A program made the position numbers and the translations under genes. Below are positions 5,995 to 33,123 of a DNA stretch of 59,871 bases, one piece after another. The notes beneath the pieces are model-generated. The model did no database searches. It was not told the DNA's origin and saw only the letters and a program-made list of their open reading frames with translations. Numbering within the stretch: position 1 is the stretch's first letter; the number at the start of each line of letters is the position of its first letter. This stretch comes from Armatimonadota bacterium (GTDB lineage Bacteria > Armatimonadota > Fimbriimonadia > Fimbriimonadales > Fimbriimonadaceae), in assembly GCA_016223145.1 (NCBI GenBank), contig JACRPN010000013.1:1-59871 (forward strand), given 5' to 3'.

Positions 5995-6773
5995 CAGACC
6001 ACCTCCTTGGAAAGGCCCTTGTAGGCTATCTTCGCGCCCGTCTTCAGGTTGGGTTTCAGGACCATCGTCGGGTTCTGCTTTAGGAAGGCTGAAACCGGGC
6101 TGTCCTCTTTCGAAAGGTCGCCGAAGATGCGCGCACCGGTCGGACACACCTCGACGCAGGCAGGCTCCTGGCCCTTTGTGACGCGGTGATAGCAGAGCGT
6201 GCACTTGTCGGCCGTGTGCTTTTGTGGGTTCCAGAACCGCGACCCGTAAGGGCACGCCTGGATGCAGTAGCGGCAGCCGACGCAATAGTCGTAGTCCACG
6301 AGGACCACGCCGTCATCGGTGATGAACGTCGCGCCCACTGGGCAAACCTGCGTGCACGGGCTATCCGTGCAGTGGTTGCAGAGCTTGGGCACGAAGAACG
6401 CGCGCTCGACCTGGTCAGCGGGCACGTCGTCCCTGAAGCCGTCCTTACCGCCGTTCGGCGAGCTGATCAGCACCGTACCGTCCTTCTTGATGACGTAGCG
6501 CTCGATCCAGGTTCGGAAGTGGCCGTCGGGCACGGCGTTTTCCTTCGCGCAAGCGTCCACACAATGGCCGCACCCGATGCACTTCTCGATGTCGATGCCC
6601 ATCGAGTAGGTCGTTGTCGTGTATCTGCCGTTCCTCTCGGGCTTGTGACGGGTGATCTTCGTGGTCAGGTTGGTCCACGCGCCATAGCCCGCGGCGCCCA
6701 CCCCGATCAGGAGCAGGGATCGTCCCGTGCTCTTCAGAAAGTCGGACCTTGAAGGCTGTTGAGAATCAGGCAT
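5994..6773 (-). CDS. Four-cluster [4Fe-4S] ferredoxin-like subunit (NrfC/PsrB type)
   Basis: Electron-transfer subunit of 259 residues with sixteen cysteines arranged for four [4Fe-4S] clusters: Cys65-68-71-75, 132-135-140-144, 164-167-170-174 and 191-194-206-210. The N-terminus has a hydrophobic helix (LLLIGVGAAGYGAW, about 21-34) after SRSDFLK, resembling a Tat leader that lacks the twin arginine, so it is probably an anchored, outward-facing subunit. It starts at ATG 6773, overlapping the tetraheme stop by one base, and its stop overlaps the NrfD start. In NrfCD/PsrBC systems this subunit docks on NrfD and passes electrons to cytochromes. No catalytic molybdoprotein is nearby. Confidence 0.93.
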   Translation of the reverse strand: MPDSQQPSRSDFLKSTGRSLLLIGVGAAGYGAWTNLTTKITRHKPERNGRYTTTTYSMGIDIEKCIGCGHCVDACAKENAVPDGHFRTWIERYVIKKDGTVLISSPNGGKDGFRDDVPADQVERAFFVPKLCNHCTDSPCTQVCPVGATFITDDGVVLVDYDYCVGCRYCIQACPYGSRFWNPQKHTADKCTLCYHRVTKGQEPACVEVCPTGARIFGDLSKEDSPVSAFLKQNPTMVLKPNLKTGAKIAYKGLSKEVV

Positions 6774-7321
6774 CACTTCACCTCCTGCGCCGGGTGCATC
6801 GTGTGACACGTGATGCACTTTTCGGTCGGGTTGTGGGTCGCCAGGTCTTGTTGGGGCAACGACGCCGGGCGCCCGGCCATCTTCTGGTGGCAAACGCCGC
6901 AAAACGCCCGGCTCGTGGGCTTCGCCGGCTTCATCTTCTCGAAATCCTGAACGTGGGCTTCGGCAGGTCCGTGGCAAGACTCGCAAGCGACGCCCGCAAC
7001 AACGTGCGGCGAAGCGAACTTGTCCTCATGGCAAGTCTTGCACGCTTCTTTGCCCGCGTGAGTAAGGGGCTTGGAGGCGTGTTCCTGGACGGAATCGGAG
7101 CGGTAGAATCCGGTTTGGCCGAATGATGGGGGCACGAGCACGGTCCGCGCCAACAAAAAGACGACGATCAGTACGAGTGCGGTAACAGCCAAGTGGATCA
7201 CCTGGGGTGGGACACCTCCCCGGGCCTCTCCCGATCCACCCTCGAGGGGTGGTTCCATTGGCGGGCCGCCGGCTGACCCTTCATCCGGCGACATCAAACG
7301 ACGAGCACGTTTCCCTATCAT
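6773..7321 (-). CDS. Membrane-anchored tetraheme cytochrome c
   Basis: Short protein of 182 residues with one N-terminal membrane helix (about 41-62) and four CxxCH heme motifs: CKTCH (94), CESCH (113), CGVCH (141) and CITCH (169). The helix and heme spacing suggest an inner-membrane anchor with a periplasmic heme domain. The first 40 residues are Pro/Gly/Glu-rich and would be cytoplasmic; a start at Met10 is also possible. It is coupled by a one-base overlap to the Fe-S and NrfD genes, forming a cytochrome/Fe-S/NrfD triad like Geobacter Cbc or Desulfovibrio Qrc modules (family knowledge). Confidence 0.88.
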   Translation of the reverse strand: MIGKRARRLMSPDEGSAGGPPMEPPLEGGSGEARGGVPPQVIHLAVTALVLIVVFLLARTVLVPPSFGQTGFYRSDSVQEHASKPLTHAGKEACKTCHEDKFASPHVVAGVACESCHGPAEAHVQDFEKMKPAKPTSRAFCGVCHQKMAGRPASLPQQDLATHNPTEKCITCHTMHPAQEVK

Positions 7322-7433
7322 ATTTCATCTCCTGCTCGGCACTCCGAGCTCTCGAGACAAACCCTGTTTTCGGTCCGGGCTGCCCGCTATCGCCCGGAAT
7401 CGCAATACTGCGCGCTCGCCGCGTTCTTGGCCC

Positions 7434-8927
7434 CTATTTCTGAACGCCGTGGCAGTCTTTGCACAGCATGTCCTTCCACATGTCCCCGACATCGCCCGGA
7501 TGCCGGAATTCCTGCCCGGTCGCAGAAACCGATGGCTTCCCGTTCGGCCCAGGCTGGGAGATGATCGTGTGGCAGGAGTTGCAGTCCTTCGTGATCACCT
7601 TGCCCTTGTCGCTCACGTGCTTTCCGTCATGACACCGGAAGCATCCCGCAGAATGGATGTGGTCCAGGTTGTTCGGAAATGCCTTCCAACTCACCCCCAT
7701 CTCAGGGAAGTAGTTCAATCCATAGATTCTCTGAAGCTCCTTGATGGCGGTGTCGAGTTCCTTGGACATTGAGGTCAGCACCCCCGGGTTCGCTTCTTTG
7801 TAGGCATTGCGGACAGCAGCAGCTATGCCCGCCTTCCCCTCGGCCTCGGTCTTGTATTTACCCTCCAGGGCCTCGACCGCAATTCGCTTGATTCCAGGCA
7901 GCTTGGGGCTGACCCACCCTTGCCCCATCGCCAGATTCACGGTCTCTTCAGGATGCTTGTACTGGTGCGATGGCCGGTTGTGGCAGTCGATGCAGTCCAC
8001 GAGGCGCTTCTCGCCGCTTTTGATCTGGGCATCGGTGATCTTCTCCTCGGTGCTTCGATAAACAGTGACATTGCCCTGCCCGTCGGTCATCTCCACATAC
8101 GGGATGACCTGGCGCTGGCGGTCCGATGCGATATAGCGCACTTCGTGGTCGAGGTACATGTGCGCGTGGATTCCCTGCGATGCCCCGCGCTCGTCGCCGC
8201 CGATCTTCCAGGACATCTGAAGGTTGTGAGCCGAGTTGGCGTCATCGGAGAGGTAATAGGTCCGGTCCCTCAGCTTCTGGCTATAGAACTGCTTGGGCCA
8301 ATGGCACTGCTCGCAGGTGTCCTTGGCGGGGCGCAGGTTCGCAATCGGGGTTTCGATCGGAGTCTTGTACTTGTGGAAGATCGTCGAATACACCTGATAT
8401 GCGCCGGAGAGCTTGGATTTGACGTACCATCCCGCTCCCGGGCCGATGTGGCACTTGACGCACGGCACCATCGCGTGGGGCGAGTTCTGGTAGGCCGTAT
8501 ATTCCGGCTTCATGATGACATGGCACGTGGTTCCACAGAACTCCACAGACTCCGTGTACTCGTAAGCCTGATAGGAGCCAAACGCCGAGATCGCGAAGAA
8601 GAACACCCCGCCATAGAGGATCGTGGCCACCGCACGTCGGTGCCGCGGGTTGTTGAAGTCCACCGTGGGAAGCCGATCCGGGTCTGTGGCCTTCTTAAGC
8701 TTCTTGTGGGTCTTCATGACGCCCAGAATGGCGATGAAGAGTCCCAACACGAAGAACGGCGGAATCCCCGTGAACGCGATCAGGCCCACATAAGGGTTCT
8801 GATTCTTGGCGAACGAATCGATGGCCATCAGGAAGAAAATCAGGCCAAGGGAGATGCCGGCCACAGTTATGCCGAACATCGTGGTCGTGTTATAAAATGC
8901 GCGCGGGAGTTTTCTCTTCATCGTCAA
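7434..8927 (-). CDS. NapC/NirT-like multiheme cytochrome c with three N-terminal helices
   Basis: Protein of 497 residues. Three hydrophobic segments (about 18-37, 46-71 and 100-120) precede a heme domain with six CxxCH motifs (CVKCH 156, CEQCH, CIDCH, CFRCH, CNSCH, CKDCH) and a first CxxxCH motif (CGTTCH, 131-136). NapC/NirT proteins take electrons from quinol and hand them to periplasmic partners, which fits the position between b-type fusions and the NrfD module. Having three rather than one membrane helix is unusual for NapC. ATGs at 8927 and 8921 both could start it. A 112-base gap separates it from the tetraheme gene. Confidence 0.87.
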   Translation of the reverse strand: MTMKRKLPRAFYNTTTMFGITVAGISLGLIFFLMAIDSFAKNQNPYVGLIAFTGIPPFFVLGLFIAILGVMKTHKKLKKATDPDRLPTVDFNNPRHRRAVATILYGGVFFFAISAFGSYQAYEYTESVEFCGTTCHVIMKPEYTAYQNSPHAMVPCVKCHIGPGAGWYVKSKLSGAYQVYSTIFHKYKTPIETPIANLRPAKDTCEQCHWPKQFYSQKLRDRTYYLSDDANSAHNLQMSWKIGGDERGASQGIHAHMYLDHEVRYIASDRQRQVIPYVEMTDGQGNVTVYRSTEEKITDAQIKSGEKRLVDCIDCHNRPSHQYKHPEETVNLAMGQGWVSPKLPGIKRIAVEALEGKYKTEAEGKAGIAAAVRNAYKEANPGVLTSMSKELDTAIKELQRIYGLNYFPEMGVSWKAFPNNLDHIHSAGCFRCHDGKHVSDKGKVITKDCNSCHTIISQPGPNGKPSVSATGQEFRHPGDVGDMWKDMLCKDCHGVQK

Positions 8928-8943
8928 CTCTCTGGGTCCGTTT

Positions 8944-8977
8944 TTGGAAGACGGGCCCGCGAGGGCCCGTCTTCCAA
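8944..8977 (-). terminator. 15-bp perfect hairpin between two cytochrome genes
   Basis: TTGGAAGACGGGCCC, loop of four, then its exact complement. Read on the minus strand it follows the 566-residue fusion gene by 14 bases and is trailed by AAAAAC rather than T residues. It precedes the NapC-like start by 17 bases, where it could also shield the ribosome site. Probably a partial terminator or mRNA-stability element that sets different levels within the operon. Confidence 0.55.
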
Positions 8978-8990
8978 TCGTCCGGTGAGG

Positions 8991-10691
8991 CTACTCCAGT
9001 TCGTGCCTCCCGTGCTCGAACTCCGCCTCCTCTTTGGTCACCGTGCCGAAGAACATCTTTCGGCCCAGCGGCAGATACAGCGGGCTGAATATCGTCGTGT
9101 ACAGGTGCCAGATAAAGATGGCGCCGATGGCGAGGATCGCCTCGTCCGCATGCGCCAAATAGGCCATTGAAACTCCCTGCTCCGGGAGCACCTTAGAGGC
9201 CTGTACCGGGAACCACAGGCAGAGCCCAGAGAGCATCATGATCGGCAAACCCCAGAACACCGCGAAGTAGCCGAATTTGGCGCGGAAGGAGTACTTGCCA
9301 TAAGTGGGAACTGACCCGCGCTTGCCAAAGTAAAAGCGGAACGTCTCGACGAGGTCGTGCCAGTCCTGCTTGTTCGGCAGCATGCTGATCTTTCGGATTG
9401 AGAACCCAATCTTCTTCCAGCTCCAGAGCAGGTAGATGAAGTGCATCGTTCCAGCCGCGATCATCACGAGCGCGCCGACGCGGTGGAGCGTCCTGGCGAG
9501 CCCAATCCCGCCGAGCGCCTCATAGAGTGACTGCATCCGGGGATCGTCGTAATACTTCAGCGGCAGACCGGTCAGCGCCAGAAGGATGAATGAGCTCGCG
9601 AAGGTCCAGTGCTGGAAGCGTTGGAAGGGCGTGAACCAGAGATAGACCTTTTCTTCGGCCGTTTCCCTCTCTGCATCGCCCCGCAAGATGTCCTCCTTTA
9701 AGTTCGCCTTGAAGCGCCGGAACTGATGCTTCACGCCCGCGCGCACGTCCAGGATGATCGAAATGATCAGCAGCCCAAGGACGCCGTAGGTGAGAATGGT
9801 GAACAGCATCACCTCGCCCCGAAGCACGGCGCTCTCTTTGGCCTTGATCGCCAGGTGCGTGACTCCCGACTGTGCGAACTTGGCAACGGCGCCTTCGTGG
9901 CACTTGGCGCAGGTCTTCTGCGAGTTTGCCGGATGAATGCTGGAGGCCGCGTCCGTTTTTGACAGCACTTGGTGTGGCGGGTGGCAGTCCGTGCAGATTG
10001 CGGCTTCCTTCGAGCCGAAGCGGACGGCCTTGCCATGGAAGCTCTCGTTGTACGACTTCACCGCGTCGGTGTCGACGTTGTGCTTGGTCATCAGAGACGT
10101 ATTGCTGTGGCACCTTGTGCAGATCGCCAGCTCTTCCTTTCGCGTGTAGGCCTTGGGCGACTGAACCGAGTGCGAGTTGCCACCGTGGCAGTAAAGGCAA
10201 GAGGGGCGGTCGAGGTCCACGGCAGATTCCGGCTGGTGGGCGCTCTTTTCGTACTGCTCGGCCTCATCGGGATGGCACATGCCACACGTGGGAGTCTCGA
10301 TCTTGGCTCTGTCATGCGGGACCTGGTCGATCCCCATGTGGCAGTCCTGGCAGGTCAGGTCCTTGTGAACACTGTGCGCCAGAGACTTCCCATCGACATA
10401 GAGTGATCGAACTCTTCCCGAGCCCTCTCGGACCACAAAGCCCAGGCCACCGTGGCACTGCAGGCAAACCGCCACCTCGTGCCCTTCGATTCTGAAGGCT
10501 CCCCGGTTCTGTGGAAGGCCTTGCTGGGAGTAGGCCGGGCTCCCAACCATGATAACGGCGGAAATCCCGGCGATGGAGGTGAACAGAGCGAAATCCCTAA
10601 GCCGCTTGCGGCCCGGCCCGCTCGCCGCTTGAGTCTGTGGCCTTCGCCGCCTGAACGTCATTTGCCCAAGGATGCGTCGTATGGTCTTCAT
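8991..10691 (-). CDS. Heptaheme cytochrome c fused to cytochrome b561-like membrane domain (CbcL-like), copy 2
   Basis: Fusion of 566 residues. After an N-terminal signal/anchor, seven CxxCH motifs are visible (CLQCH, CQDCH, CGMCH, CLYCH, CTRCH, CTDCH, CAKCH) in the first half. The second half has several membrane helices with conserved histidines (FQHWTFASSF, LHRVGALVMIAAG, HADEAILAIGAIFIWHLY) typical of the FdnI/HydC-like di-heme cytochrome b fold. In Geobacter, CbcL has this c-plus-b architecture and oxidises menaquinol at low potential. Its start overlaps the stop of the upstream paralogue by four bases. A role in quinol oxidation is inferred. Confidence 0.88.
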   Translation of the reverse strand: MKTIRRILGQMTFRRRRPQTQAASGPGRKRLRDFALFTSIAGISAVIMVGSPAYSQQGLPQNRGAFRIEGHEVAVCLQCHGGLGFVVREGSGRVRSLYVDGKSLAHSVHKDLTCQDCHMGIDQVPHDRAKIETPTCGMCHPDEAEQYEKSAHQPESAVDLDRPSCLYCHGGNSHSVQSPKAYTRKEELAICTRCHSNTSLMTKHNVDTDAVKSYNESFHGKAVRFGSKEAAICTDCHPPHQVLSKTDAASSIHPANSQKTCAKCHEGAVAKFAQSGVTHLAIKAKESAVLRGEVMLFTILTYGVLGLLIISIILDVRAGVKHQFRRFKANLKEDILRGDAERETAEEKVYLWFTPFQRFQHWTFASSFILLALTGLPLKYYDDPRMQSLYEALGGIGLARTLHRVGALVMIAAGTMHFIYLLWSWKKIGFSIRKISMLPNKQDWHDLVETFRFYFGKRGSVPTYGKYSFRAKFGYFAVFWGLPIMMLSGLCLWFPVQASKVLPEQGVSMAYLAHADEAILAIGAIFIWHLYTTIFSPLYLPLGRKMFFGTVTKEEAEFEHGRHELE

Positions 10692-12478
10692 GGTTGTTTG
10701 TCCGTCGTGTCCTCGCTTGGCGCCGCTGCGGCGTCCTCTCCCGCAGAAGCCTCGAGGAGTTCAAGTTCGTATGCGTGCTCCCGCTCCATCTCTTCGCGGC
10801 TGATCTTGCCGGTCACTGCGACTGGATTGAACGGGAACACGTTCGGATGGAAGAGCACATAGTTCAAGTGCCAGCAGATCACCGCAAGGAATGCGAGAGT
10901 CGCCTCGTAACCATGGGCGATGAAGGCGATCGGCCAAGCGTCTTCCGGCAGCCGGGTGCTGAAATACATCGGATACCAAAGGATGAACCCAGTCAGGATC
11001 ATCAGCGGGACACCCCAATACTCTGCCAGGTAGTCGATCTTCGATCTGAAAGTGTAATGGTCGAACTTGGGCTCCTCGTGCGAAAGCCCGAAGTAGGTCT
11101 TGGTCACCTGGATGAAGTCTTGGACGTCCTTGCGGTTCGGCAGCATTCGCCAAGTGGAAATGCCTCCGCCGTACTTCCGCCATCGCAGCAACAGGTAGGT
11201 CACATGCCAAAGGGCCACGACAATCAGGCCAATCGCGGCGACACGGTGGATGTATCGTGCTGAGTCGAGCCCTCCCACCAGGGCAAGTTGCGCTGCCGCG
11301 CCCTCGGCCTGGGAGAATCGAAGCGGCATGCCTGTGACCATGAGGGTCGTCACGCTAAGGAACAAGAGGAAGTGCTGCAGCCGGAGGTTGAGGTTCATTC
11401 GCTCAAACATCTGTTGAGGCACCGTGGGCTTGGGAGGTTTCGGCCGGATTGCGTGAAGGAAGAACGCGACGACCAGGGCGCCCAGGGTGCCGTATGCGAT
11501 GAACGTGGAAAGCGGCGAGCTCATGGTCGCCAGGATGATCGTCAAGACCAGGAGCAAATAGCTCAGGCTGATGAAGGTGGCCGCGGGCTTTCCGCACCTT
11601 GGAGGCTCCTTCGACCGGAACACGACTTTATAGAGGTCGAGGCCGATGCTTGTGACCATGAAGGCGATCGTCCCAAAGATGAGGATGCGGAAGAACAGAA
11701 GCACCCCATAGAGGAGCGGCTTCTCTTTGACCTTGAGCCTGAGGTGGTTCGCCCCAGAAATGGCGAAGTTCGCCTTTGCGCCGGGGTGGCACCCGGCTTG
11801 GCCGCACGTCACGGCGACGTTGTTGGGGTGCGTCGGCGACTTGGGGTTCATCGGCGAGAGCACGTCGTGATGTCCGTGACAGTCGGTGCAGATAGCGGTT
11901 TTGTGAGGGTCTTTGAACCGCATCAGCGCTTTGCCGTGAAAGCTATCGTTATAGGAGGACACGGCCTCCGCGTCTACGTGGTAGCGCTGCATGATGCCTG
12001 TCTGCTCGTGGCACTGGGTGCAGACCTCCACTTTCTGCGCGCGGGTCCACTTTGAACCGGCAGTGATCGCGTGGGGCTTGCCGCCGCCATGACAGAACAT
12101 GCACGTCGGATGATCGCCTTTCACGAAGTCCTTGTTGGAGTGCATGCTCGCCAAGAACGCCTCGGTCTGTCCCGAGTGGCAGGTCGAGCACGACGCCTTA
12201 TGCTTGAGCATCTCGGGCGTGTGGGGCGTTTCCGTGATCGTGCTGTGGCAGTCGGTGCAGGCAAAGGCCGCATGGGGCGACTTGCCGAGTTCGGCGGGGT
12301 CCACTGCCGGCCCTGCTTGAGCCTCTGCGGAGTGGCACGCCAGGCAGTCGGCATTCGCCGCGGAAGGCGCCGATGAATCGGGCGCCTGGCCCTGGTCTTG
12401 TTGGCCCAGGGTCGGTGCAACGAGGAAGGTGGAGACGGCGAGCAGGATGGGGATCAACCTCGCCAATAGGCGTTTCAT
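10688..12478 (-). CDS. Multiheme cytochrome c fused to cytochrome b561-like membrane domain (CbcL-like), copy 1
   Basis: Paralogue of the next gene, 596 residues. A signal peptide (MKRLLARLIPILLAVSTFLVAP) leads into six CxxCH motifs (CLACH, CTDCH, CSTCH, CMFCH, CTQCH, CTDCH) and a seventh, odd CGQAGCH motif with four intervening residues. Then follow membrane helices of FdnI/HydC type (LRLQHFLLFLSVTTLMVTGMPLR, YIHRVAAIGLIVVALWHV, FIAHGYEATLAFLAVICWHL). It has more helices before the b domain than copy 2. The C-terminal tail is acidic and Ala-rich. It is the first gene of the large operon; two tandem copies imply a heteromeric or bifunctional complex. Confidence 0.88.
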   Translation of the reverse strand: MKRLLARLIPILLAVSTFLVAPTLGQQDQGQAPDSSAPSAANADCLACHSAEAQAGPAVDPAELGKSPHAAFACTDCHSTITETPHTPEMLKHKASCSTCHSGQTEAFLASMHSNKDFVKGDHPTCMFCHGGGKPHAITAGSKWTRAQKVEVCTQCHEQTGIMQRYHVDAEAVSSYNDSFHGKALMRFKDPHKTAICTDCHGHHDVLSPMNPKSPTHPNNVAVTCGQAGCHPGAKANFAISGANHLRLKVKEKPLLYGVLLFFRILIFGTIAFMVTSIGLDLYKVVFRSKEPPRCGKPAATFISLSYLLLVLTIILATMSSPLSTFIAYGTLGALVVAFFLHAIRPKPPKPTVPQQMFERMNLNLRLQHFLLFLSVTTLMVTGMPLRFSQAEGAAAQLALVGGLDSARYIHRVAAIGLIVVALWHVTYLLLRWRKYGGGISTWRMLPNRKDVQDFIQVTKTYFGLSHEEPKFDHYTFRSKIDYLAEYWGVPLMILTGFILWYPMYFSTRLPEDAWPIAFIAHGYEATLAFLAVICWHLNYVLFHPNVFPFNPVAVTGKISREEMEREHAYELELLEASAGEDAAAAPSEDTTDKQP

Positions 12479-29698: not shown

Positions 29699-30047
29699 GG
29701 AACGGCTCCATATCGCGAACGACGTTGTTGTCTTCGTCCAGCAGCACCATCTTGGGCACAACCGGCTCGTCGGTCCAGGTGAACGCGGCGATGATCACAC
29801 GGTCGCCGGCGTGGAAAAAGTGCGCCGCGCCGCCGTTGAGCCCGATGTGCCCCTTGGGACCGGCGAACGCATAGGTGGCGATGCGCGAAGGGCGGTCCAC
29901 GGCCCAAACCTGGACCATTTCACCGTCTACGATCCCGACGCGCTGCATGATCTCGCCATCGATCTCGATGCTTCCGACGTAGTCGGGGTTGGCATAGGTG
30001 ACCCTGGCGTGGTGGATCTTCGACTTAAGCAGTTGGAGCAAGCGCAT
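29685..30047 (-). CDS. panD: Aspartate 1-decarboxylase
   Basis: Pyruvoyl enzyme making beta-alanine for pantothenate, 120 residues. The self-cleavage site Gly25-Ser26 is present in YVGSIEID, with KSKIH before it and IGLNGGAAHFFHAGDRVII after it, all diagnostic. It overlaps ccmF by 23 bases and pyrE by 14, an unusually tight linkage of cofactor, nucleotide and cytochrome-maturation genes. The C-terminal VVRDMEPFHVEG is normal. Regulation would follow the upstream ccm genes. Confidence 0.94.
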   Translation of the reverse strand: MRLLQLLKSKIHHARVTYANPDYVGSIEIDGEIMQRVGIVDGEMVQVWAVDRPSRIATYAFAGPKGHIGLNGGAAHFFHAGDRVIIAAFTWTDEPVVPKMVLLDEDNNVVRDMEPFHVEG

Positions 30048-32745
30048 CGGCAGTTGGCTCGGCGAGGCTTTCCGGCTCGGTTTGAGCCTTTGCGCCCGGC
30101 GCCACGGGTTTCACCCTGCGGTGCCATGCGGCCAGAAATCCGCCGGCGGCAAGGATACCCAGCCCGATCCAGACCAGGCTCGTGAACGGCTTGTAGAAGA
30201 ACTCGATCGGGAAGACGGCGGAGCTGAAGCCAATAACGATGTTGGCCGACTGATCGGTGGCGTTCATCCCCGCAAGCGAAATCTGGTAGTCCTCATCGAG
30301 CACCGCTGGCTCCTCTACGGGCCCAGCCGAGGTGATTCGCATCTTCGGGTTCAGCTCTCGCATTTGCCCGGTCGCAACGTTATGAACGGCAAGCTTGGCG
30401 CCAAACTTGGTGCCCTCTTGGCCCGGCTGACCTTCGCGTGTCATGCCCTTGTAGCTGATGATGTAGTCCTTGAACCTAAGGGACCTTCCCTTTTGAAGAT
30501 TGTGGGGCTCGGTGGCGTCGGTCTGGATGCCGCCCATCGCCAGGTACATGTCGTTGAGCAGGCCATGCTGGATGTGGGGCCAGTTCATCGGGTTCGAGTT
30601 GCCCGCGGAGTCCTGAACGTAGTAGAGCCCAGGCCGCGCATCGAACGCCTTTCTTGTGTCGAGGCCGCCCAGCGTCTTGTCCATGATTCCGGCGAGCCCG
30701 GAGCGCCCTTGTGCAGCCAGGAGGGGCGTCGGTTCCACCCTCAGCTTGACCTTGTTTCGGCGATCGGCCAGGTCGGCGGTGATGCCTTCATAGGTGAGCT
30801 TATAGCCCATCGCGAACGCGGGCTTGTTGGCTTGAAGGAGCACCTGCTCCTTGCGCTCGAGGCCGCGCGAAAGGACCAGGCCGGCAAGCAGCACGCCGAC
30901 ACCGACGTGCATGGTCCAGACGGCGAGCGCCTCGCGTTTGGAGTGCTTCCAGCGCTCGCCCATGGTCCAGAGGCTCATGACGATCACGAAATAACAGAAT
31001 CCTGCGAGGATGAGGGTCCAGGTGAGGGCGGAAACCTCAATGCGCTTGCCCTCTGCGAGCTGGCCGGTGAAGAACAGGGGAATCTTGTCCTCGAACGCGC
31101 CGAGCTTGCCCCAGGGGCTATACATGAGCGCGAGGAGCGTTATGCCGGTCAGGCCAAACGACACGCAGGCAGGCCCGTATAGCCGCCCCAAAAGCCGCCT
31201 CATCCCGACGCCGCCCCATGCCACAAAGGGCGCCGCCGCCATGATGACCAGGATCGGGAAGACGAACCAAGGCACAATTTGGTGGTACTGCCACTCTTCG
31301 ATCACCTTCATGCGGTCGCCGAGCGAGGGCGCCATGAAGGCCGAGAGCGCTCCCACCGCGCCAATGGCCATGCCTAGACCTAGGGGGACGGTGACCCAAT
31401 AGGAGAGCGGCTTTGAGGGAGCCCCCGCCTTCTCTGCGGACTGAGAGCGCAATCGGAGCGCAAGGAACAGAATGGCGCTCACGATGGCGATTCCCAGCAT
31501 CCACCATTTGCCGACCGATGCCTGGCCGCCGAACTCCTTCGCCACACCGGAAACCATCGGCACGCTCATGCCGAAACCCGCGGCGAGAGCCAGGCCAAAC
31601 ATGAAAAAGCCGGCCCAGCGGTATGCGCCCTCGCGGGTCATCCCGGGACGAGCGTCTTCAGAGGCTGTGAACTCGCGCCTAAGTTCAAACGCCCGAACCG
31701 TCCAGAGAGCGCCGAACCCGACGATGCTGAACGCCCCGAGGCCGATCAGCAGCCAAAGCGCGCCCTTCTGCATCTCGGCGAAGCTGTGAACGCTGGTATC
31801 GCCCAAAAGGCCGCTGCGGGTCAAGAACGTCCCGTAAACGAAGGAAAGGAACGGCAGAGCGCCCAGCAGCAAGTTGGTGATGACCCACTTGCCACGGTTG
31901 ATCTGGACGATGAGGCCATGAATAAAGATCGCGCCAAGGACGAAGGGAACAAAGCTGGTGTTCTCGACCGGGTCCCACTTCCAGAAGCCGCCCCAGCCGA
32001 GCGTCTCATAGGCCCACAGACCGCCCATGCAGAGGCCGACGCCGACAAGCGTGAGGGAAACGAGCGCCCAGGGGCGGACGAGCCTGGCCCAGTCAACCAC
32101 CTGCTTCGTAATGAGCGCGCTGACGGAGTAGCAGAAAAGCGCCGTGAGCGATCCAAAGCCAAGGAAGATGACGGGCGGATGGATGATGACCCAGTAGTTC
32201 TGAAGCGCCGGCGAAAGGCCTACACCGTCCGGAGGGACGATGAACTTCCCTTCCGATGCGACGATGTTGAACGGCGACTCGTAGGCGATGATCGCGCAAA
32301 GCGCCGCTTGAAACAGAGCGTAAAAGACCGTGTACCAGCGCCGGTAGATCCCGGAGCTTTTCATCGTCAACAGCCCGAATGCAGCCGAGCAGACCGCCCA
32401 AAGCAAGAAGCTCCCCTCTTGGCCCGCCCAAACGCCGGCGATTCGATAGGGGACCGGGTTCATCAGGTCGTTGTGCCCGAAGACGTAGGGGTATTCGAAC
32501 CGGTTCTGGACGAAGAGCGTGGCAAGGACCAGGAACACGCCAAACAAGGAAGCCGATCCGAGCGTGAAGCCCCAACCGCCGACAGTTTTGCCCCACTTCG
32601 TCTTCGGGGCAAACAGCCAACCTACGATGGCTGCGATGAAGAAGGCGATGCCGAGAAAAACGAGCGCCCTACCGCAAACGCCAAGGGCCAGAGACCAATC
32701 TGGCGCTACGGGCATCTCGTGCTGGTGGTCAGAGAGTTCCTGCAA
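30025..32745 (-). CDS. ccmF: Heme lyase CcmF (cytochrome c maturation, System I)
   Basis: Large membrane protein of 906 residues with the WWD heme-handling motif WGGFWKWDPVENTSFVPF and conserved P-loop histidines such as IHPPVIFLGFG. CcmF transfers heme from holo-CcmE to apocytochrome CxxCH motifs. It is longer than the typical 640-700 residues because of an extended C-terminal periplasmic domain (about 640-880). ATG 32745 starts just three bases after ccmE; MPVAPDWS (32715) is an alternative. The multiheme operon in this window is an evident client. No ccmABCD, ccmG or ccmH is seen here. Confidence 0.94.
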   Translation of the reverse strand: MQELSDHQHEMPVAPDWSLALGVCGRALVFLGIAFFIAAIVGWLFAPKTKWGKTVGGWGFTLGSASLFGVFLVLATLFVQNRFEYPYVFGHNDLMNPVPYRIAGVWAGQEGSFLLWAVCSAAFGLLTMKSSGIYRRWYTVFYALFQAALCAIIAYESPFNIVASEGKFIVPPDGVGLSPALQNYWVIIHPPVIFLGFGSLTALFCYSVSALITKQVVDWARLVRPWALVSLTLVGVGLCMGGLWAYETLGWGGFWKWDPVENTSFVPFVLGAIFIHGLIVQINRGKWVITNLLLGALPFLSFVYGTFLTRSGLLGDTSVHSFAEMQKGALWLLIGLGAFSIVGFGALWTVRAFELRREFTASEDARPGMTREGAYRWAGFFMFGLALAAGFGMSVPMVSGVAKEFGGQASVGKWWMLGIAIVSAILFLALRLRSQSAEKAGAPSKPLSYWVTVPLGLGMAIGAVGALSAFMAPSLGDRMKVIEEWQYHQIVPWFVFPILVIMAAAPFVAWGGVGMRRLLGRLYGPACVSFGLTGITLLALMYSPWGKLGAFEDKIPLFFTGQLAEGKRIEVSALTWTLILAGFCYFVIVMSLWTMGERWKHSKREALAVWTMHVGVGVLLAGLVLSRGLERKEQVLLQANKPAFAMGYKLTYEGITADLADRRNKVKLRVEPTPLLAAQGRSGLAGIMDKTLGGLDTRKAFDARPGLYYVQDSAGNSNPMNWPHIQHGLLNDMYLAMGGIQTDATEPHNLQKGRSLRFKDYIISYKGMTREGQPGQEGTKFGAKLAVHNVATGQMRELNPKMRITSAGPVEEPAVLDEDYQISLAGMNATDQSANIVIGFSSAVFPIEFFYKPFTSLVWIGLGILAAGGFLAAWHRRVKPVAPGAKAQTEPESLAEPTADALAPTA

Positions 32746-32748
32746 AGG

Positions 32749-33123
32749 TTATTCCTTTTCCTTTCCTTCGTACTTGCTGGGGCACTTGAGGTTGAGCTGC
32801 CGCGCATGAAAGACGCCGTCCTTCATGCCTCCGATCGCCACGACCTGGGTGGCTTCCCCCATGTTTGAGGGCGCCGGGCCATCGTAGATAACGTCCATTC
32901 GGCCGCCATTGGCGTCGGTCATCGTGAAACGAACTTCGCTCTTGGCCAAATCGGTGAAGAGCGTCGTTTTGTCCAGGTCGCCGATCACGTGGAGGCCATT
33001 GGCCGTGCTCGTTTTTGCCTCTGCGATCGTGACGTAGGGGCTGGCGTTGTTTAGGAACGCCATCATCATCACGCTAGCGGCCAGGACGCCGACGACCACC
33101 GAAATCAGAACTCCGATCTTCAT
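32749..33123 (-). CDS. ccmE: Heme chaperone CcmE, CxxxY variant
   Basis: Periplasmic heme chaperone of 124 residues with an N-terminal membrane anchor (MKIGVLISVVVGVLAASVMMM) and the beta-barrel (GLHVIGDLDK, RFTMTDANGG, VVAIGGMKDGVF). Classic CcmE binds heme through His in HxxxY; here the end reads HARQLNLKCPSKYEG, so Cys114 and Tyr118 form CxxxY. This variant is known from some Desulfovibrio-type and archaeal Ccm systems (family knowledge). Start at ATG 33123 (GAGG upstream) rather than TTG 33144. It precedes ccmF with three bases between. Confidence 0.9.
   Translation of the reverse strand: MKIGVLISVVVGVLAASVMMMAFLNNASPYVTIAEAKTSTANGLHVIGDLDKTTLFTDLAKSEVRFTMTDANGGRMDVIYDGPAPSNMGEATQVVAIGGMKDGVFHARQLNLKCPSKYEGKEKE

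What the first reader, a model, noticed from the sequence alone, without database searches (positions are those of the whole stretch)
32749..33123. CcmE with CxxxY in place of HxxxY
Seen: the heme-attachment end reads QLNLKCPSKY, giving Cys114-x3-Tyr118; no His is at the position. Known: CxxxY CcmE is reported from a Ccm variant (Desulfovibrio-type and archaeal) that lacks usual CcmH/CcmG. Here ccmF is directly downstream, and no ccmG/ccmH lies in view. A bacterium outside those groups using this variant, next to many multiheme proteins, is notable.
Basis: partly seen in the sequence, partly recalled or inferred. Interest (0 to 1): 0.6.

Follow-up and report, generated by a model that had tools for sequence, protein, structure and literature searches.

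The report
Cysteine-type heme chaperone, phylum-wide variant
This bacterium loads heme onto its cytochromes with a heme-carrier protein that uses a cysteine instead of the textbook histidine; its whole phylum does the same, mostly without two standard helper proteins, and its heme-attaching enzyme carries a doubled domain that might stand in for one of them.

Summary
Window 32749-33123(-) is a 124-aa CcmE whose heme end reads KCPSKY: Cys114 sits where canonical CcmE has His, and Tyr118 is kept. It is the only CcmE in the genome. It is no local oddity: every CcmE I read in 106 genomes of the phylum (Armatimonadota; the window is Fimbriimonadaceae) has Cys. This is the known System I* (Desulfovibrio, archaea), and CPSKY is its commonest published motif. 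ccmF is adjacent; ccmABC lies on another contig. The genome's only canonical CcmG/CcmH/CcmI genes are on a 3,044-bp contig that looks like proteobacterial contamination; CcmH is otherwise in 2 of 237 phylum genomes. Beyond the lead: the partner CcmF has an enlarged periplasmic loop. The canonical CcmF 'beta cap' profile fits both halves, so the cap is duplicated in tandem (probably three copies in Acidobacteriota). None of 122 long-loop CcmF rows has CcmH in its locus; 9 of 12 short-loop rows do. In the CcmF tree this is one clade, so one event. That the second cap replaces CcmH is a testable guess. CcmE is a known kind; I found no description of a tandem-cap CcmF in the papers I could search.

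The parts
32749..33123 (-). ccmE, 124 aa, one N-terminal membrane helix (by its sequence), Cys-type heme chaperone
   Evidence: ORF; PF03100 56.7 bits; the only CcmE in the genome
32770..32784 (-). CPSKY motif, Cys114 (32782-32784) to Tyr118
   Evidence: sequence; all 32 rows of A1 have Cys114 and Pro115
30025..32745 (-). ccmF, heme lyase, 906 aa from a TTG (start uncertain)
   Evidence: PF01578 and PF16327; best solved relative 6zmq, T. thermophilus CcmF, E 9.6e-42
31960..32016 (-). tryptophan-rich WWD heme-handling segment of CcmF, aa 244-262 (WAYETLGWGGFWKWDPVEN)
   Evidence: sequence; many columns invariant or nearly so in 54 CcmF. The name WWD follows the literature
30523..30861 (-). CcmF periplasmic beta cap, copy 1 (aa 629-741)
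   Evidence: canonical CcmF loop profile A7 against A5: probability 97.3%
30187..30522 (-). CcmF periplasmic beta cap, copy 2 (aa 742-853)
   Evidence: A7 against A6: 95.9%; model matches the 6zmq cap, Z 11.1, 93 aligned, rmsd 2.9
6773..12478 (-). four ORFs with 4, 6, 7 and 6 CxxCH motifs: likely clients of the Ccm system
   Evidence: (Cytochrome_C7, NapC/NirT, b561-type families)

Best explanation
The gene encodes a System I* heme chaperone. [quoted passage not shown] ccmABC on another contig; a DsbD; no CcmH, no canonical CcmG and no System II in the genome once one short foreign-looking contig is set aside; the same gene set in most of the class; and a CcmF whose periplasmic loop holds two tandem copies of the domain that canonical CcmF has once. 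Inferred: CcmABC put heme on CcmE; Cys114 holds it, probably by a thioether bond, with Tyr118 as iron ligand; CcmE hands it to CcmF, which attaches it to CxxCH sites of the multiheme cytochromes encoded nearby; DsbD and TlpA/ResA-like thioredoxins keep the CxxCH cysteines reduced. Guess: the extra cap does the substrate-holding job that CcmH does elsewhere.
For: CcmE identity and single copy. Cys and Tyr positions against His-type CcmE. Cys in 71 of 71 class loci and 39 of 39 sequences outside the class. ccmABC; CcmB in 98 of 113 class genomes. DsbD in 108 of 113, own genome included. CcmH over cut-off in 1 of 113 class genomes and 3 of 237 phylum genomes, the own-genome hit being contig C7. 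dsbE/CcmG over cut-off in 1 of 113, also C7; CcmI likewise. No ResB in the own genome. Tandem cap: A5-A6 90.7%, A7-A5 97.3%, A7-A6 95.9%, with unrelated CcmE controls 0.1% and 1.9%; models at pLDDT 87.8 (whole CcmF) and 94.2 (loop). Literature: Cys-CcmE works in D. desulfuricans and M. acetivorans (passages of PMC3601427, and PMC9084895).
Against: No biochemistry exists for this protein. D. vulgaris CcmE was reported to bind heme non-covalently through its Cys (passage of PMC3884852). The long-loop CcmF is one clade, so its link with missing CcmH is one event. G113 has a short loop and no CcmH detected, so a single cap can perhaps also go without CcmH. The genome does hold a CcmG/H/I contig (C7); contamination is inferred, not proven. 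Eight of 113 class genomes gave no CcmE match, and I read only 106 of the 182 phylum genomes with a match (105 in the class; 77 outside it).
Confidence: 0.85

Rival explanations
1. The genome really owns the CcmG/CcmH/CcmI genes on contig C7, so it is a mixed system in which a Cys-type CcmE works with a canonical CcmFGH.
For: The assembly holds C7 with a ccmF 3' end, ccmG, ccmH and ccmI. G+C of C7 (61.5%) equals that of the window (61.2%). G115 and G116 show that Cys-CcmE can coexist with CcmH.
Against: C7 is 3,044 bp long; its tetranucleotide profile correlates 0.786 with the genome against a minimum of 0.836 for 96 own fragments. Its CcmH DNA is 69-73% identical to Cupriavidus, Caballeronia, Sphaerotilus and Rhizobium plasmids. 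None of the 112 other class genomes has CcmH or CcmG over cut-off, two same-genus single-contig genomes included. No second CcmE or CcmB that would belong to it exists.
Confidence: 0.05
2. CcmE carries heme non-covalently, Cys114 being an iron ligand rather than a covalent anchor.
For: Reported for D. vulgaris CcmE (passage of PMC3884852). [quoted passage not shown]
Against: D. [quoted passage not shown] acetivorans CcmE is heme-stained on gels while its C120A mutant is not (passages).
Confidence: 0.15
3. The doubled beta cap has nothing to do with missing CcmH; it marks one CcmF lineage that happens to lack CcmH, and may serve other contacts or occlusion of the active site.
For: One change on the CcmF tree explains all long loops. 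G113 lacks CcmH with a single cap. Cys are rare in the loop, so the insert is not a thiol reductant as CcmH is.
Against: The gap in loop length is clean (114-142 against 205-330, nothing between), both kinds occur inside one phylum, and no long-loop locus held CcmH.
Confidence: 0.5
4. The second cap is not a duplication but an unrelated beta domain.
For: For Negativicutes only the first copy is recognised, and for Bacteroidota neither, by profile; the Fimbriimonadia loop compared with itself gave a shifted match of only 1.0%.
Against: The canonical profile fits both halves, the halves fit each other when split, and the controls fail; the Fimbriimonadia loop takes the canonical profile at two successive places (95.5 and 89.5%). 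Structure places the second half on the 6zmq cap at Z 11.1. The Acidobacteriota loop matches itself shifted by one unit at 99.2%.
Confidence: 0.12

Closest known systems
System I* of Desulfovibrio (Allen 2006 and Goddard 2010; known here only from passages of the review PMC3601427)
   Same: Cys-type CcmE, ccmABC and CcmF, no CcmH and no CcmG; CPSKY is the commonest motif of the variant
   Different: Here ccmABC and ccmEF lie on separate contigs; CcmD and CcmI were not detected (weak tests); a whole phylum is involved; CcmF carries a second beta cap. The cap state of Desulfovibrio CcmF was not seen
Streamlined archaeal CcmABCEF of Methanosarcina acetivorans (PMC9084895, passages and section 11)
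   Same: CcmABC, Cys-CcmE, CcmF; no CcmD, CcmH or CcmI detected; ccmABC apart from ccmE and ccmF
   Different: One CcmF instead of split CcmF1/CcmF2; a bacterium with multiheme cytochromes and a DsbD. The set called Archaea-specific is close to what this bacterial class has
Canonical System I (E. coli; Cupriavidus pHG1)
   Same: CcmABC, OB-fold CcmE with the conserved Tyr, CcmF core with WWD segment and conserved His
   Different: Cys for His, no CcmG/CcmH/CcmI, doubled cap in CcmF
System II CcsBA (7s9y, 7s9z)
   Same: Attaches heme without the CcmE and CcmH proteins (recalled); its periplasmic beta domain matches cap copy 2 (Z 10.2)
   Different: No CcmE; ResB was not found in this genome

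Membership tests
System I* (Cys-CcmE Ccm variant) | CcmE family protein with Cys in place of the heme His, in CxxxY | tested here: met
   Cys in all 108 distinct CcmE sequences read in the phylum, window included, with Tyr replaced by Glu in 2
System I* (Cys-CcmE Ccm variant) | CcmH and CcmG absent (usual, though about a third of such bacteria keep CcmH according to PMC3601427) | tested here: met
   no CcmH or dsbE match over cut-off in the own genome except on contig C7, judged foreign; weaker TlpA/ResA-like thioredoxins do exist
System I* (Cys-CcmE Ccm variant) | ccmA, ccmB, ccmC and ccmF present | tested here: met
System I* (Cys-CcmE Ccm variant) | CcmD and CcmI, present in the Desulfovibrio system | tested here: inconclusive
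   CcmD: 0 of 113 class genomes over cut-off, but the model rings in only 2 control genomes. CcmI: over cut-off only on C7; the model rings in only 2 controls
System I* (Cys-CcmE Ccm variant) | heme bound covalently to the Cys | not testable with these tools
   needs heme stain or mass spectrometry
Canonical System I | CcmE with HxxxY | tested here: not met
   no His-type CcmE in the genome
Canonical System I | CcmH present | tested here: not met
   found only on contig C7, judged foreign
System II (CcsB/CcsA) | ResB/CcsB present | tested here: not met
   no PF05140 match in G000; the only two PF01578 matches are CcmF and CcmC
CcmF/NrfE heme lyase | Cytochrom_C_asm and CcmF_C domains; fold of 6zmq | tested here: met
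   whole model against 6zmq Z 34.2, 571 aligned, rmsd 3.3
CcmF/NrfE heme lyase, single-cap form | one periplasmic beta cap between the last two helices | tested here: not met
   two tandem copies

The most novel reading that the evidence does not exclude
A distinct lineage of CcmF, found here in Armatimonadota, Acidobacteriota, Zixibacteria, Calditrichota, Negativicutes, Bacteroidota and others, carries an enlarged periplasmic loop made of two or three tandem copies of the beta cap. The added cap replaces CcmH as the part that positions the apocytochrome, which would explain how Cys-CcmE systems make cytochromes c without CcmH.
Probability: 0.3. Interest if true: 0.68.

Novelty: new variant of a known kind. 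Interest (0 to 1): 0.45.

Why it matters
How System I* attaches heme without CcmH, which E. coli needs, is open in the literature I could read. If the cap copy is the substitute, the question becomes testable by deleting one domain. The class-wide, archaea-like gene set also argues that the streamlined Ccm set is not special to archaea. Practically, none of the CcmA, B, C, E or F proteins here reaches its NCBIfam cut-off, so such systems are probably missed in annotation, while a 3-kb contaminant contig would make this genome look canonical.

Tried and rejected
Second CcmE copies: 19 weak PF03100 matches in class genomes end near profile position 80-88; I fetched all 19, and the 13 that my class profile also hit lack the motif. 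I take all 19 for OB-fold proteins, not CcmE; 6 of them I did not read. Four genomes (G042, G045, G078, G079) do have a second true CcmE, also Cys-type.

CcmF as a named-genome query found nothing. One of its two search patterns contains KCPSKY, so the absence of His among those 80 named loci is partly by construction and is not counted as evidence.

Sub-threshold CcmH matches in 10 class genomes: most of the 8 in family f3 lie in long frames that I read as CcmF, by position next to ccmE or by similarity to a CcmF query; the rest, the two in family f1 included, I did not trace. None was counted as CcmH. ResB partial matches in 11 of 113 class genomes were not followed.

CcmE tree: too few columns, 52 of 110 inner branches open; not used. 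CcmF loop counts leave out three incomplete rows (L114, L035, L105) of 137. L163 looks frameshifted and was left out of A5 and A6, but it remained in A3 and A4 and among the 122 long rows. Negativicutes and Bacteroidota loops did not show two copies by profile.

Foldseek alone gave no loop match at E under 0.001; the VIA-align second look gave Z 11.1. Conserved CcmF His were not mapped to E. coli numbers: the paper tried (PMC10746174) did not hold the terms.

Full report
What is there. Window 32749-33123, minus strand, is an open reading frame of 124 aa that starts with ATG at 33123. Pfam CcmE matches at 56.7 bits, and it is the only CcmE match in the 3.87-Mb, 97%-complete genome. The end reads LNLKCPSKYEGKEKE. 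Against two annotated His-type CcmE (Cupriavidus and Sphaerotilus plasmids) Cys114 aligns with the His of KHDENY and Tyr118 with the Tyr. ccmF starts a few bases further on (30025-32745).

Where it comes from. The genome's name is hidden. Class and phylum relatives share 400-base cores with named records: Fimbriimonadaceae MAGs (for example L035=L163, L087=L168, L088=L175, same family as the window), Fimbriimonadales KatS3mg018 (L070=L189, same order) and an Armatimonadetes MAG (L150=L222, same phylum). So the window is Fimbriimonadaceae, Armatimonadota; this is inference from those identities.

How far the Cys goes. PF03100 matches in 105 of 113 class genomes and in 169 of 237 phylum genomes at least 85% complete. 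I read the sequence in 67 class genomes, the window's included (71 of 71 fetched class loci), and in 39 genomes outside the class, of 77 with a match there. Every one has Cys. In 108 distinct sequences, the window included, the motif is KCPSKY in 87, QCPSKY in 9, KCPSRY in 6, KCPTKY in 4 and KCPSKE in 2. The two KCPSKE (G190, G192) have lost the Tyr; the 2011 review mentions only Phe in its place (PMC3601427, passages). The 79 distinct named sequences also read KCPSKY, but the search pattern favours that.

The rest of the machine. ccmA, ccmB and ccmC are together on contig C12. CcmB is in 98 of 113 class genomes. DsbD is in 108 of 113, own genome included. CcmH: the class search at E up to 0.01 gave 11 of 113, only one over the cut-off, the window's own genome; in the phylum 3 of 237, namely the own genome, G115 and G116. 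CcmG (dsbE): weak matches everywhere, over cut-off only in the own genome. CcmI: over cut-off only in the own genome. CcmD: none over cut-off, with a model that rings in only two control genomes. No ResB in the own genome.

The own-genome CcmG/H/I. They lie together on contig C7, 3,044 bp long, with a ccmF 3' end. Its CcmH DNA is nearest to beta- and alphaproteobacterial plasmids at 69-73% identity. Its tetranucleotide profile lies outside all 96 own fragments (correlation 0.786 against a minimum of 0.836), though its G+C is the same. Two single-contig genomes of the same genus have none of these genes over cut-off. I read C7 as contamination; recent transfer is not excluded.

What the literature already holds. 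System I* with Cys-CcmE, CPSKY as the commonest motif (25 of 36 genomes), delta-proteobacteria, Chloroflexi and Firmicutes, and CcmH present in about a third, are all in PMC3601427 (passages). M. acetivorans needs Cys120 of its CXXXY CcmE and uses CcmABCEF only (PMC9084895, passages and section 11). So the CcmE finding is a known kind. I found no paper in the held library that describes it for Armatimonadota (searches, listings only); that library lacks most subscription journals.

What I did not expect. CcmF here is 906 aa against 660 for the solved T. thermophilus protein. Much of the extra length is in the periplasmic stretch between the conserved His613 and Lys852. I measured this stretch in 134 CcmF rows, leaving out three incomplete ones. 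It is 114-142 aa in 12 rows (9 plasmid rows; Armatimonadota G113, G115, G116) and 205-330 aa in 122 rows (35 class, 29 other phylum, 58 named from several phyla). Nothing falls between. CcmH was found in the fetched locus of 9 of the 12 short rows and of 0 of the 122 long rows; for the phylum rows the genome-wide search agrees. For named rows outside the phylum only the fetched locus was tested. Exceptions: short rows without CcmH in the locus are L252 and L257 (plasmids, chromosomes unseen) and L117 (G113, none found in the genome).

What the long stretch is. I split it in two and made profiles: A5 (first half) and A6 (second half) from 43 long-loop rows, A7 from the 12 short loops. A7 fits A5 (97.3%, 81 columns) and A6 (95.9%, 91 columns); A5 fits A6 (90.7%, 62 columns). 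Two controls against unrelated CcmE give 0.1% and 1.9%. AlphaFold2 models are confident (whole CcmF 87.8, loop alone 94.2). The second half matches the periplasmic domain of 6zmq at Z 11.1 (93 aligned, rmsd 2.9) and CcsBA 7s9y at Z 10.2. In Acidobacteriota, whose stretch is 326-330 aa, the canonical profile fits at three successive places (97.1, 44.6 and 90.6%), and the stretch matches itself shifted by one unit at 99.2%. For Negativicutes only the first copy is seen, and for Bacteroidota none. A review names this domain the beta cap in CcsBA and notes a like structure in CcmF, above the heme (PMC10663686, passages). I found no report of a doubled cap (searches, listings; passages).

How much it proves. 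A CcmF tree without the loop (97 rows, quick method) puts all 85 long-loop rows in one clade with full SH-aLRT support, and one change explains long and short. The association with missing CcmH is therefore a single event. Cys-CcmE occurs on both sides (G113, G115 and G116 have it with a single cap), so Cys and the doubled cap are separate traits.

How it most likely works. CcmABC load heme onto Cys114 of CcmE; the Tyr probably ligates iron; CcmE gives heme to CcmF; CcmF joins it to CxxCH sites such as the 23 in the four ORFs at 6773-12478; DsbD and TlpA/ResA-like proteins keep thiols reduced. The loading, transfer and covalent steps are inferred from studied relatives. The extra cap as stand-in for CcmH is a hypothesis.

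Noticed in passing
G000 contig C7 (locus L107, 1-3044): Proteobacterial-type ccmF 3' end, ccmG, ccmH, ccmI on a short contig binned with this genome; probable contamination that would mislead pathway annotation.
   Followed up: yes
L132 (G190) and L133 (G192): Cys-CcmE with CPSKE: the conserved Tyr is replaced by Glu in two genomes of different families.
   Followed up: partly
L143/L159 (G115), L147/L160 (G116): Armatimonadota with Cys-CcmE that keep an unusual Cys-rich CcmH (ICSCPDCG, VCKCGCG) and a single-cap CcmF.
   Followed up: partly
L117 (G113): Cys-CcmE, single-cap CcmF, no CcmH detected; a short CcmI-like ORF (my reading; no Pfam match) follows ccmF. The exception to the cap/CcmH pattern.
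   Followed up: partly
L179 (record titled Nitrospira sp. ACE_NIT10): The CcmF of this contig falls inside the Fimbriimonadia clade; probably a mis-binned contig.
   Followed up: no
L037-L055: Weak CcmE-like hits in class genomes; the 13 of 19 that were read lack the heme motif. They look like small OB-fold proteins.
   Followed up: no
window 6773-12478 (-): Cluster of four multiheme cytochrome ORFs (23 CxxCH), two fused to b561-type membrane domains.
   Followed up: no
class genomes, for example G090 C19 and G063 C84: Partial ResB matches (profile positions 149-269) in 11 of 113 class genomes, most of which also use Ccm; frames of 411-695 aa, not read.
   Followed up: no
window 30025-33123 and C12 ccmABC: None of CcmA, B, C, E or F here reaches its NCBIfam cut-off, so automatic naming would likely miss this system.
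   Followed up: yes
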